Positions 5,461 to 30,167 of a DNA stretch of 64,000 bases are shown piece by piece. Source of the stretch: Pseudomonas abieticivorans. Lineage in GTDB: Bacteria > Pseudomonadota > Gammaproteobacteria > Pseudomonadales > Pseudomonadaceae. Position 1 is the stretch's first letter. Each line of letters starts with the position of its first letter. Under the pieces are notes generated by a model that saw only the letters and a program-made list of their open reading frames with translations, did no database searches and had not been told where the DNA came from. A program made the position numbers and the translations under genes. The stretch spans positions 2,799,501-2,863,500 of the forward strand of contig NZ_CP094975.1 of the NCBI RefSeq assembly GCF_023509015.1, written 5' to 3'.

Positions 5461-5630
5461 ATCCTCATGATCGTGGGGACTATGTCGCAATTTGCTGCTA
5501 CCCTCACAAAATCCGCATGATCGTGAGTATTTACTCTGAAATTAGTGCTGCCAAGCGTAAAACCTCACGGTTGTAAGGATTTGGTCGTCAAACTAATGAG
5601 TTTATGCATAAACCGCACGAACATGAGGAT
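5461..5630. promoter_or_regulatory. Array of four HipB-type operators at 50-bp spacing
   Basis: Four imperfect 20-bp palindromes lie at 5461-5480, 5511-5530, 5561-5580 and 5611-5630. Examples are ATCCTCATGATCGTGGGGAC and AACCGCACGAACATGAGGAT, giving a consensus near A(T/A)CC(T/G)CA-N6-TGAGGAT. The start-to-start distance is exactly 50 bp each time. The last copy ends 7 nt before the hipB start at 5638 and covers its ribosome-binding site. Several repeated operators upstream of hipB are known in E. coli (TATCC-N8-GGATA), so HipB/HipBA autorepression is the natural reading. Confidence 0.75.
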
Positions 5631-5637
5631 TCTGGGA

Positions 5638-5937
5638 ATGTTGCTTCCAGTAAAAACCGCAGATTCACTGGGTTTGATCATGCGAGCCAGCCGCAAAGCC
5701 ATGTCAATTCGACAGGACGATGCAGCAGGCATGATTGGCATCAGTGAAAATTTTCTGAGCAAGGTTGAGCGTGGCGGTGAAGCGGTGCAGTGGGGCAAGG
5801 TATTCCAGGCTTTAGAGGCGTTGGGTTTGAAGCTGAGCGTCGAGGTGCCAGACTCCGTTGCCCAGCAGACCCTGCTGAATATGGCTAAGTACGACGCTAC
5901 GAAGCTTACAGCCAAACCTGCGGGGCCTCGCTTTTGA
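5638..5937 (+). CDS. hipB: HipB-like antitoxin, XRE-family repressor
   Basis: 99-aa helix-turn-helix protein. The region TADSLGLIMRASRKAMSIRQ-DDAAGMIGISENFLSKVERG is a Cro/XRE HTH, followed by WGKVFQALEALGLKLSVEVP, the dimerisation strand typical of HipB. The C-terminal tail (LNMAKYDATKLTAKPAGPRF) is longer than a minimal HTH and could reach the toxin. ATG 5638 is preferred because a GAGG lies 9 nt upstream; an in-frame ATG at 5623 sits inside the last operator. The stop overlaps the hipA start (TTGA), so antitoxin and toxin translation are coupled. It should neutralise HipA and repress the operon through the four palindromes upstream. Confidence 0.88.
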   Translation: MLLPVKTADSLGLIMRASRKAMSIRQDDAAGMIGISENFLSKVERGGEAVQWGKVFQALEALGLKLSVEVPDSVAQQTLLNMAKYDATKLTAKPAGPRF

Positions 5938-7235
5938 GTCGCGAGTTGGAGGTCTGGACCAATGAAGCTTGGGTTGGCACGCTGTCCGAGCAAAACGGTT
6001 TGTGGCGCCTTTCGTACAGCGCCCAATGGCTTGCCTCACCGGATCATTACCCAATAGCACCGAGCCTGCCCTTGCAGAAAGAGCCGATTATCGACGGCAG
6101 CTCCGTACGCCCTGTGCAGTGGTACTTTGATAATCTTTTGCCCGAAGAGGGCCAACGTATCCTGATCGCCAAGGCTGCGCGGGTAACGGTCGAGGATGCC
6201 TTTGGTTTGCTGGCCTGTTTTGGGGCCGAGTCGGCGGGCTCTCTCACCCTTTTGTCACCTGGGCAGGGGCAGGCGCCTGGCAGTCTTGAGCCATTGACGG
6301 ACGAGGAGCTTTCGAGGCGTATCCGGGAAATGCCGCACGTGCCTTTGGCCGAGCAGGCACAAAAGCGCATGTCGCTGGCCGGTGCCCAGCACAAGGTGGC
6401 GATCGTATTGAAGGATGGTGAGTTGTGGGAGCCCACCGGCAGCATGCCCTCCACGCACATTCTGAAGCCTGACCACCCGTCTGAAGAGTATGCCCATTCG
6501 GTGATCAACGAGTGGTTTGTTATGACCCTTGCAAGACGGGTAGGTCTTAACGTGCCACCTGTCGTCCGGCGGTATGTTCCGGAGCCGGTCTATTTAATCG
6601 AGCGCTTTGATCGTCGTTTTGCGCAAACGCACTGGGAGCGTTTGCACAGCATTGATGCCTGCCAGTTATTGCAGTTGGACCGTGCCTTCAAATACTCCGC
6701 TGGCAGCATCCCGAAACTGAATGAAATCGTCCAGCTCTGCACCATGCGCCTTGCAACCACCCAGGCACTTTACCGTTGGGTATTGTTCAACGTACTGATC
6801 GGTAATACCGATGCGCATTTGAAAAACCTGAGTTTTTTGATGACGGGCGATGATGTCGAGTTGGCGCCCTTTTACGACTTATTGAGTACTGCCGTTTACG
6901 AGACGGCCACGTTTGACAAGCAACGCTGGCCAAGCCAAGTGGAGATGGCCTGGCCCATTCAAGGCACATCCCGAATGGTCGATCAGACGGCCGCTCGTCT
7001 TATCGAGGCGGGGCAAGTCATGGGGCTATCGCAGGCCACGGCAACGCGTCAGCTCGCGGCTATGGGTAAAGCGATAAAAGAGCAAGCCGAGCAGCTTCTG
7101 ACCGAGGTTGAGCAAGGGAACGGGAAGTTGCTTGAGCAGCGTCCTGAACTGGCCGCGACCTTTGCAGGCGAAATGCGGTGCTTGCGTGCAATCGTCTACG
7201 TCATCATTCGAGATATGTGTGCCCAGGCGCTGTAG
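5934..7235 (+). CDS. hipA: HipA serine/threonine-protein kinase toxin
   Basis: 433-aa HipA. The N-terminal HipA_N domain spans roughly residues 5-105 (LEVWTNEAWVGTL, PVQWYFDNLLPEEGQR). MSLAGAQHK holds Ser147, equivalent to the autophosphorylated Ser150 of E. coli HipA. The kinase core has HILKPD (ATP Lys region), LIERFDRR, the catalytic GNTDAHLKN (Asp293, Asn298) and the metal-binding APFYD (Asp315). All key residues are present, so the kinase should be active; E. coli HipA phosphorylates glutamyl-tRNA synthetase and causes persistence. Start is TTG 5934, overlapping the hipB stop by 4 nt. Base composition is visibly lower in GC than the flanking metabolic genes, consistent with horizontal transfer. 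Confidence 0.93.
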   Translation: MSRELEVWTNEAWVGTLSEQNGLWRLSYSAQWLASPDHYPIAPSLPLQKEPIIDGSSVRPVQWYFDNLLPEEGQRILIAKAARVTVEDAFGLLACFGAESAGSLTLLSPGQGQAPGSLEPLTDEELSRRIREMPHVPLAEQAQKRMSLAGAQHKVAIVLKDGELWEPTGSMPSTHILKPDHPSEEYAHSVINEWFVMTLARRVGLNVPPVVRRYVPEPVYLIERFDRRFAQTHWERLHSIDACQLLQLDRAFKYSAGSIPKLNEIVQLCTMRLATTQALYRWVLFNVLIGNTDAHLKNLSFLMTGDDVELAPFYDLLSTAVYETATFDKQRWPSQVEMAWPIQGTSRMVDQTAARLIEAGQVMGLSQATATRQLAAMGKAIKEQAEQLLTEVEQGNGKLLEQRPELAATFAGEMRCLRAIVYVIIRDMCAQAL

Positions 7236-7303
7236 CCGTTCTTCGGGAAACTTCCTACAGCATTCCCGGAAACCCGTATCTAGCTCCCCCTTCCTGACCT
7301 GCT

Positions 7304-7309
7304 TATAGT
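7304..7309 (+). promoter_or_regulatory. Putative -10 element of the structured leader
   Basis: TATAGT lies 5 nt before the first hairpin at 7314, so a start site about 6-8 nt downstream would place the hairpin at the transcript 5' end. No good -35 is visible at 17 bp. Low confidence. Confidence 0.35.
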
Positions 7310-7313
7310 CCGT

Positions 7314-7482
7314 CCCGTCGTCGACAGATCAACGACCGGGCCTTGCATCCCGTCCAAGAGATCAGTCCCATAACTGCACAGCAGGCTACCCTGTCTGCTG
7401 ATGCGTTATGGCAGCTGTGTGTGGGAGGTCTTCGGATCTGCCGGCTACTTGGACCGGTTTGCAAGCCTGCACACAGCTGCCA
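7314..7482 (+). ncRNA. Highly structured RNA leader upstream of a small ORF
   Basis: Successive stems can be drawn by eye. CCCGTCGT (7314-7321) pairs with ACGACCGGG (7332-7340, one bulge). CTTG pairs with CAAG (7342-7358). CAGCAG (7379-7384) pairs with CTGCTG (7395-7400). A long stem GGCAGCTGTGTG (7410-7421) pairs perfectly with CACACAGCTGCC (7470-7481), extended by two wobble and two G-C pairs. Inside the long stem are a hairpin with a UUCG tetraloop (AGGTC-TTCG-GATCT, 7426-7439) and CCGG...CCGG (7441-7457), making a three-way junction. It ends 48 nt before the ATG of a 79-aa protein. From memory, similar leaders recur before small ORFs in Pseudomonas genomes. It could be a cis-regulatory leader or a processed small RNA. 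Confidence 0.6.
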
Positions 7483-7530
7483 CCCAATCGTCTGCAACGA
7501 AGGTGGCTATCGCATCCAAGGAAAGCAATC

Positions 7531-7770
7531 ATGACCGAACACGACGTTCCAACCCGCGTCCTCCTCATAAACCCTCACGCCACCCCTCGCGAACTGATCG
7601 AGTTCGCCGACCGCCGTTTCCAATCCATCCGCAACCTGATGGAAAGCCTGTCCCGCATGAACGCCCGTTGCGCCGAGGGTAAAGACCTCAGCGTGGTCGC
7701 AGACGTGGCTTATCAGTTGTTGCAGGAGGGGTGCGAGGTGCTGGAGGTTGCGCAGGAGGGGATTGAGTAG
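7531..7770 (+). CDS. Small conserved hypothetical protein (possibly DUF3077-related)
   Basis: 79-aa acidic, helical protein beginning MTEHDVPTRVLLINPHATPR, followed by ELIEFADRRFQSIRNLMESL and ending in a helix with VADVAYQLLQEGCEVLEVAQ. No signal peptide or membrane segment is seen. ATG 7531 has a good AAGGAA ribosome site 6-7 nt upstream; upstream in-frame ATGs fall inside the RNA structure and are rejected. The pattern of two amphipathic helices around a short loop is like the small DUF3077 / DUF6124 proteins that are numerous in Pseudomonas, but this is a resemblance from memory only. Its structured leader is the more notable part. A REP palindrome follows. Confidence 0.6.
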   Translation: MTEHDVPTRVLLINPHATPRELIEFADRRFQSIRNLMESLSRMNARCAEGKDLSVVADVAYQLLQEGCEVLEVAQEGIE

Positions 7771-7785: not shown

Positions 7786-7838
7786 TTCGCGGATGAATCC
7801 GCTCCTACATGGCCCGTAGGAGCGGATTCATCCGCGAA
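7786..7838. repeat. REP-like palindrome
   Basis: ttcgcggatgaatccgctcc and its reverse complement face each other across a short ATGGCC-type loop, giving a near-perfect 23-bp stem. It lies between the convergent 79-aa gene and tauD and may serve as a two-way transcription end. Confidence 0.85.
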
Positions 7839-29889: not shown

Positions 29890-30167
29890 GATGCAACACC
29901 TTTGTTGTTAAAAATTTCAATCAATGGGCTTTCGCTGTTTCAGTCAATCCGAAAGCATTGCTGAAGTCAAGCGAGGCCGGTTTTGCCCTGAAAAGGCGCC
30001 GTAAAGGCATTTTTGCTGCTTTTTAGGGCATTTATGTACGGTGTGAAGCCTGTGCAATACCGGGTTTGAGCGGGGCGTGTTCTATTTTTTACGCAGGTGT
30101 TGTGTAATAAAATGAACAACGCTAAGCTCGATTGGAACCCAAAACAGCAATAATACCGGGGGATGAC

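What the first reader, a model, noticed from the sequence alone, without database searches (positions are those of the whole stretch)
7314..7482. Branched, tetraloop-capped RNA leader ahead of a 79-aa protein
Seen directly: three hairpins in series, then a 12-bp perfect stem (7410-7421 with 7470-7481) that closes a three-way junction holding a UUCG-capped hairpin and a CCGG hairpin. Pairing of this extent is not expected by chance, and the region is free of an ORF with a usable start. A TATAGT word lies just upstream. From memory, leaders of this kind recur before small DUF3077/DUF6124-type genes in Pseudomonas, but I know of no named Rfam class or function. It could be a riboswitch, a protein-binding leader or a processed sRNA.
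Basis: partly seen in the sequence, partly recalled or inferred. Interest (0 to 1): 0.75.

Follow-up and report, generated by a model that had tools for sequence, protein, structure and literature searches.

The report
Phage-type antisense RNA switch, chromosomal copy
The folded RNA ahead of this small bacterial gene is a copy of a known phage regulator, the C4 antisense RNA, which probably keeps the gene silent by pairing with its ribosome-binding site; some related bacteria carry about 40 such copies, and in the three genomes tested most copies fit their own neighbouring gene best.

Summary
The structure is real, but not unnamed. Window 7404-7487 is a C4 antisense RNA (Rfam RF01695, 73 bits, gathering 45), the family of the phage P1/P7 immunity RNA.

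The parts stand in P1 order: -10 box, hairpin, a1/b1 targets (7342-7347, 7352-7358), C4, a2/b2 targets (7493-7497, 7515-7520; b2 overlaps the Shine-Dalgarno), then the 79-aa gene at 7531. The b2-to-ATG spacing equals P1's; the C4-to-b2 spacing is 31 nt against 33.

The genome holds 16 C4 hits, others of its genus up to 42. In four sets (126 loci) and 23 loci of other genera, C4 complements its own sites better than swapped ones (0 of 10,000 permutations each); controls are null. Stems covary strongly.

Best explanation: C4 silences its own small gene at the ribosome-binding site. The window copy pairs weakly (5 and 6 contiguous pairs at a2 and b2). The protein, a predicted two-helix hairpin of unknown function, is outside Pfam DUF3077/DUF6124, although most C4-linked ORFs examined cluster with those families.

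Known kind of RNA; the locus-specific code and chromosomal targets are the new part.

The parts
7304..7309 (+). -10-like box TATAGT
   Evidence: Same hexamer as the annotated P1 promoter P1c4, 32 nt before a1 against 31 in P1. No acceptable -35 in the window (best 2 of 6); the consensus scan finds no promoter.
7317..7336 (+). leader hairpin 1
   Evidence: Fold; corresponds to the first hairpin of the Rfam c4-a1b1 model.
7337..7352 (+). a1 hairpin CGGG...CCCG with a1 (CTTGCA, 7342-7347) in its loop
   Evidence: RF03163 c4-a1b1 match 7303-7356, 23.6 bits, below gathering 46.7; 6 contiguous pairs with a'. The free fold pairs this stretch differently.
7352..7358 (+). b1 target (GTCCAAG)
   Evidence: 7 contiguous pairs with b' 7448-7454.
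7404..7487 (+). C4 antisense RNA (mature form by analogy with P1 about 7410-7484, 75 nt; P1 has 77)
   Evidence: RF01695, 73 bits, E 2.5e-12; covariation of the family; ends by analogy.
7448..7454 (+). b' antisense segment in the P3 loop (CTTGGAC)
   Evidence: Complementary to b1 (7) and b2 (6); family swap tests.
7459..7465 (+). a' antisense segment in the junction (TTGCAAG)
   Evidence: Complementary to a1 (6) and a2 (5); family swap tests.
7493..7497 (+). a2 target (TGCAA)
   Evidence: 5 contiguous pairs with a'; weaker than the 6 or more of 119 of 126 loci.
7515..7520 (+). b2 target (TCCAAG) overlapping the Shine-Dalgarno AAGGAA (7518-7523)
   Evidence: 6 contiguous pairs with b'; starts 31 nt after the conserved CCACC end (P1: 33); its last base is 11 nt before the A of the ATG, as in P1.
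7531..7770 (+). 79-aa protein, predicted two-helix hairpin, function unknown; the presumed target gene
   Evidence: ORF; AlphaFold2 model pLDDT 82.6; no Pfam or NCBIfam family.

Best explanation
This is a chromosomal C4 antisense RNA unit of the phage P1/P7 kind. A promoter near 7304 makes one leader transcript holding the a1/b1 sites, C4, the a2/b2 sites and the 79-aa gene. C4 is cut out of the transcript (in P1 by RNase P). Its junction segment a' and its P3-loop segment b' then pair with a2 and b2 around the Shine-Dalgarno of the same gene, so ribosomes cannot start and the gene stays off by default. Shown here: the fold, family membership, the target sites in P1 order, and locus-specific complementarity across the family. 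Inferred: transcription, processing, repression in this strain, and the trigger that lifts it.
For: RF01695 at 73 bits against gathering 45. Stem covariation over 53 sequences: 97.3% of cells paired, 263 two-sided changes against 66 in shuffles, slid structures at most 47.7% paired. Own-versus-swapped complementarity over 126 loci in 4 sets, 0 of 10,000 permutations for a1, a2, b1 and b2 in each set, controls at +151 null. Sense, reversed and wrong-site controls null in the three single-genome sets. Same result in 23 loci of other genera, one of which (L042) is also among the 126. The b' complement ends a median of 8 nt before the start codon (IQR 7-9) in the 97 of 123 ORF-bearing loci with a run of 6 or more; starts were picked partly by a nearby Shine-Dalgarno. 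The P1 control recovers its annotated a1, a2 and b2 exactly and b1 at 7 of 8. The nearest orthologous loci outside this genome (63% and 60% protein identity) keep a C4-like stem, with antisense and target sides changed together (8 and 7 pairs). A. baumannii C4-like RNAs are reported as expressed and apparently processed (PMC5320573, passages read).
Against: The window copy pairs weakly with a2 and b2 (5 and 6 contiguous; duplex -6.3 and -9.3 kcal/mol) compared with a1 and b1 (-9.7 and -12.0). No good -35 box, and -10 matches across the family only modestly exceed a control stretch (4 or more of 6 in 97 against 75 of 147). The c4-a1b1 model scores below its gathering score. No expression data were available. 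In the own genome only 6 of 16 loci have both a2 and b2 runs of 6 or more, and L005, L006, L013 and L014 are not best matched to their own targets, so some copies may be decaying.
Confidence: 0.85

Rival explanations
1. A decayed C4 relic: the fold persists by inheritance, but this copy no longer represses its gene.
For: Only 5 contiguous pairs at a2 and 6 at b2, no -35 box. Other own-genome copies fit their targets poorly (L013, L014).
Against: All 17 stem pairs are standard pairs, b2 overlaps the Shine-Dalgarno with the ATG spacing of P1, its own target is still its best match among the 16 of this genome (11 against 9), and the ORF is intact with a 90% identical homologue.
Confidence: 0.12
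2. A cis-acting leader (riboswitch or protein-binding leader) in which the three-way junction senses a ligand or protein and C4-type pairing is incidental.
For: The structure sits in the 5' leader of the gene; such leaders are common (general knowledge). No direct evidence found.
Against: The P3 loop and part of the junction are the variable, unpaired parts (alignment) and follow the target sequence locus by locus.
Confidence: 0.03
3. C4 acts mainly in trans on other loci or on incoming mobile elements with the same code, as in P1/P7 immunity, and its effect on its own neighbour is secondary.
For: P1 and P7 C4 serve phage immunity against superinfection (PMC12197685 and PMC5320573, passages). 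Two C4 loci of this genome precede genes of a BRO-N-like cluster (L001, L003; L003 matches BRO-N in Pfam).
Against: Within a genome, other loci rarely fit both keys: 1 of 240, 18 of 1722 and 16 of 1722 foreign pairs. tblastn of the 79-aa protein against 50,697 phage records gives no match at E 0.01.
Confidence: 0.15

Closest known systems
C4 antisense RNA of phages P1 and P7 (Rfam RF01695; Citron and Schuster 1990, not read, cited in the passages seen)
   Same: Three-way junction, P2 capped by a TTCG loop, P3 loop (b') complementary to the ribosome-binding region, junction segment (a'), a1/b1 upstream, a2/b2 downstream, -10 TATAGT, 11 nt from b2 to the ATG.
   Different: Chromosomal; no icd or ant1 directly downstream; the 79-aa protein has no BLASTP alignment to Icd; many copies per genome; b2 begins 31 nt after CCACC, not 33, and the a2 run 9 nt after it, not 4.
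C4-like sRNA family of Acinetobacter baumannii (21 Group 1 sRNAs, PMC5320573, passages read)
   Same: Multicopy, chromosomal, C4 fold; reported to be expressed and apparently processed.
   Different: Targets were left open there. Here the target of each copy is proposed from a swap test. I did not test A. baumannii itself.
c4-a1b1 (Rfam RF03163; listed in Weinberg 2010, PMC2864571, passages read)
   Same: Hairpin 1 and the a1 hairpin lie at the expected place (7303-7356).
   Different: 23.6 bits, below the gathering score of 46.7.
DUF3077 (PF11275) and DUF6124 (PF19619) small proteins
   Same: The commonest cluster of C4-linked ORFs examined (78 of 123); similar two-helix hairpin model, at lower confidence.
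   Different: The window protein hits neither; profile comparison inconclusive (probability 41.8%).

Membership tests
C4 antisense RNA (RF01695) | Covariance model score above the curated gathering score | tested here: met
   73 bits against 45, full length 1-87.
C4 antisense RNA (RF01695) | P1/P2/P3 three-way junction | tested here: met
   covariation.
C4 antisense RNA (RF01695) | a' and b' complementary to a2 and b2 at the downstream ribosome-binding site | tested here: met
   Family-wide swap tests. In the window itself only 5 and 6 contiguous pairs, own target best of 16.
C4 antisense RNA (RF01695) | Upstream a1/b1 target hairpin (RF03163) | tested here: inconclusive
   Model match 23.6 bits, below gathering 46.7, but 6 and 7 contiguous pairs at the right place.
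C4 antisense RNA (RF01695) | Processing by RNase P to about 77 nt | not testable with these tools
   No RNA data; the feature itself is taken from PMC5320573 passages.
C4 antisense RNA (RF01695) | Represses translation of the downstream gene | not testable with these tools
   Needs a reporter assay.
P1 immI operon (c4-icd-ant) | icd and ant1/ant2 downstream | tested here: not met
   79-aa protein has no alignment to Icd; the next sizeable gene is TauD-like on the other strand.
DUF3077 or DUF6124 | Pfam match of the encoded protein | tested here: not met
   Neither family matches the window protein with the limit at E 10; none of the 30 members of its family alignment match them at 0.1.

The most novel reading that the evidence does not exclude
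Chromosomes of this genus (taken to be Pseudomonas) carry a domesticated network of tens of phage-type antisense switches. Each has its own two-key code (a' plus b') that silences mainly its own small two-helix or DUF3077/DUF6124 gene, and in many loci C4 also pairs with a1/b1 to favour an intrinsic terminator ahead of C4, so that it limits its own transcription.
Probability: 0.3. Interest if true: 0.75.

Novelty: new member of a known kind. Interest (0 to 1): 0.5.

Why it matters
C4-like RNAs occur in many copies in some bacteria, and their targets were left open in the paper that described them in A. baumannii (PMC5320573, passages read). The swap test gives a direct, testable answer: each C4 is keyed to the ribosome-binding site next door, and foreign pairs that fit both keys are about 1% or fewer in the three genomes tested. 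This turns dozens of uncharacterised genes into a candidate set of default-off genes, and offers a natural series of mutually selective antisense pairs.

Tried and rejected
Riboswitch or protein-binding leader: rejected as main reading because the variable loop and junction track the target sequences.

Attenuation through a1/b1: a terminator-like T-run lies between b1 and C4 in 1 of 16 own-genome loci, 16 of 26 single-genome loci, 10 of 42 and 10 of 42 in two genomes, 16 of 22 other-genus loci, and in P1 (a first count with a stricter T-run rule gave 35 of 126). Blocking a1/b1 raised terminator pairing by more than 0.1 in 20 of 54 and lowered it in 6, but a control block raised it in 14. Weak evidence, kept only as part of the novel case; the window is not among the loci with the T-run.

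Function from structure: Foldseek against the PDB gave no match with E <= 0.001. phrog_6327 (unknown function) matched the window protein at 5.7e-4 and only 2 of the 30 family members. The genome-contig scan gave one weak hit, in Haladaptatus, taken as chance. The search for homologous proteins gave two relatives, one of them the own-genome paralogue.

Duplex energies showed the same trend for a1, a2 and b2, but were noisy because the GC-rich P3 stem was included; for b1 in the own genome 468 of 10,000 permutations reached the own value. The contiguous-run measure was used instead. Labels printed by the scripts have a and b exchanged; the naming was corrected.

Corrected on checking: in a note I wrote that b2 starts 33 nt after C4 as in P1; anchored on the conserved CCACC it is 31 against 33.

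Dropped rows: L036 (contig end); L166, L175 and L182 (contig ends). In one search L167 and L168 have identical C4 and flanks as printed and L170/L172 nearly so, so these rows are not independent. In one search, 15 of 30 loci of window-like proteins had no C4-like stem within the simple scan (about 250 nt upstream). The paper search was too broad to be of use.

Full report
Observation. The fold is far better than dinucleotide shuffles (z -4.75 for 7314-7482; z -4.59 for 7404-7487).

Source.

Identity. cmscan of the window finds RF01695, C4 antisense RNA, at 7404-7487 with 73 bits (gathering 45) and full model coverage. A permissive scan adds a sub-threshold match to RF03163, the a1/b1 targets of C4, at 7303-7356 (23.6 bits, gathering 46.7). 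So the 'unnamed leader' is a member of a named antisense family.

Comparison with phage P1. The P1 record AF234172 annotates promoter P1c4 (its -10 reads TATAGT), a1, b1, C4 (77 nt), a2, b2 and the icd start. The P1 control recovers a1 and a2 exactly in the C4 junction, b2 exactly in the P3 loop, and b1 at 7 of 8. In the window the last base of b2 lies 11 nt before the A of the ATG, as in P1; b2 begins 31 nt after the conserved CCACC (P1 33), and the a2 run 9 nt after it (P1 4). The -10 box has the same letters and lies 32 nt before a1 against 31 in P1. A -35 box is lacking in the window. Over 147 loci the best -10 match mostly ends 31-34 nt before a1 (106 of 147), but it only modestly beats a control stretch (4 or more of 6 in 97 against 75), and the mean -35 match is 2.6 of 6.

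Copies. The own genome has 16 hits, 15 above the cut-off. Of 36 genomes of the genus looked at, own included, 32 have C4, up to 42 hits each; of 57 genomes in that one search have it, and 0 of 14 control genomes. In a wider draw of the order, 36 of 244 genomes and 19 of 112 genera have it; large draws use stricter filters that lose weak matches.

Locus-specific pairing. For each C4, the longest run of Watson-Crick complementarity between its own segments and its own sites was compared with the sites of all other loci of the same set. Sets: own genome 16, G005 42, G019 42, and 26 loci from as many other genomes, 25 of the genus and one (L042) of another family. Own versus swapped means for b' against the Shine-Dalgarno region: 6.25/4.42, 7.19/4.51, 7.33/4.46 and 7.96/4.77; for a' against a2: 6.06/3.72, 6.93/3.91, 7.21/4.16 and 6.92/4.68. 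In all four sets 0 of 10,000 permutations reached the own value for a1, a2, b1 and b2. Runs of 6 or more at own sites: a2 119 of 126, a1 124 of 126, b2 98 of 126, b1 94 of 126; swapped pairs reach 6 in 6% to 33% of cases depending on site and set. Controls at +151 in the gene are null; sense, reversed and wrong-site controls are null in the three single-genome sets. In 23 loci of other genera (L042 again included) the result is the same (b2 8.09/4.63, a2 7.13/4.10, 0 of 10,000 for all four sites). Where an ORF was found and the run is 6 or more (97 of 123), the b' complement ends a median of 8 nt before the start codon; start codons were chosen partly by a nearby Shine-Dalgarno, which favours such a position.

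Selectivity. Single keys are not private: own is strictly the best match in 4 of 16, 21 of 42, 28 of 42 and 11 of 26 loci for b2, and 4 of 16, 15 of 42, 16 of 42 and 2 of 26 for a2. With both keys added, own is strictly best in 11 of 16, 31 of 42 and 36 of 42; requiring both at 6 or more, own pairs pass in 6 of 16, 33 of 42 and 33 of 42, and foreign pairs in 1 of 240, 18 of 1722 and 16 of 1722. The window's own target is its best match among the 16 (11 against 9), although its runs are short (5 and 6). The selectivity rests on the two keys together and is not complete.

Stems. On 53 C4 sequences including P1, 97.3% of cells pair, 23 of 27 pairs show two-sided changes, and 263 cells change on both sides against 66 in shuffles. 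Relatedness inflates such comparisons, but slid structures stay at or below 47.7% paired.

Gene. The 79-aa product has no Pfam or NCBIfam family. It is 90% identical to P0001 and 73% to the paralogue at L010, and matches at E 1e-4 occur in 76 of 199 genomes of the genus, own included. ORFs were found at 123 of the 126 loci and cluster as 78 DUF3077/DUF6124-like, 16 window-like, 8, 7 (BRO-N-like), 4, 2 and 8 singletons. The window protein is modelled as two helices, 19-41 and 50-78 (pLDDT 82.6); a DUF3077-type member gives helices 37-60 and 64-89 at lower confidence (pLDDT 72.6). Profile comparison between the two groups is inconclusive, so a common origin is only a guess.

Orthologous loci. 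The two closest protein relatives in other genomes (63% and 60%) each have a C4-like stem just upstream with an altered P3 loop and junction and correspondingly altered b2 (8 pairs) and a2 (7 pairs). In that scan 15 of 30 loci, the window's own included, had such a stem.

Literature. 'C4 antisense RNA' occurs in 17 held papers, RF01695 in 4, c4-a1b1 in 1, DUF3077 or DUF6124 in 1, and 'C4 antisense' with Pseudomonas in 6 (listing only). In the listings and passages seen I found no report of multicopy C4 in Pseudomonas or of its targets there. Passages of PMC5320573 say that Weinberg 2010 predicted the motif in Pseudomonadales among other orders. Subscription papers and supplements, including that of Weinberg 2010, were not seen.

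Verdict. A known kind of RNA in a chromosomal setting, probably a default-off antisense switch for a small gene; the locus-specific code across many copies is the part worth following. Interest 0.5.

Noticed in passing
L004, L018, L163, L164, L187 and others, between b1 and C4: A hairpin followed by a T-run, like an intrinsic terminator, lies between b1 and C4 in many loci and in phage P1, but not in the window.
   Followed up: partly
7408-7770; P0002; L188 (phage phiAH14b): An in-frame ATG inside C4 lets a gene caller extend the small ORF through the RNA (120 aa here; 136 aa for the paralogue P0002). In phiAH14b an annotated CDS also overlaps the matched stretch.
   Followed up: partly
L001 and L003 (own genome); L021, L023, L080, L107, L116: C4 precedes larger proteins of one cluster, of which L003 was scanned and matches BRO-N: phage-like antirepressor candidates beside the small unknown ones.
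   Followed up: partly
G005:C1:3628832-3630617 and G019:C1:1820921-1827285: C4 units stand in short runs (three within 1.8 kb; four within 6.4 kb), suggesting local duplication.
   Followed up: no
29983-30162 (-): Rfam RF00623, Pseudomonas sRNA P1, 147.8 bits.
   Followed up: no
5545-7235 (+): A HipB-like and HipA-like toxin-antitoxin pair directly upstream of the leader.
   Followed up: no
about 7788-7836: A long inverted repeat just after the 79-aa gene; no terminator-like site is found there.
   Followed up: no
L005, L006, L013, L014 (own genome): C4 folds whose own targets are not their best match in the genome; possible decaying units.
   Followed up: partly
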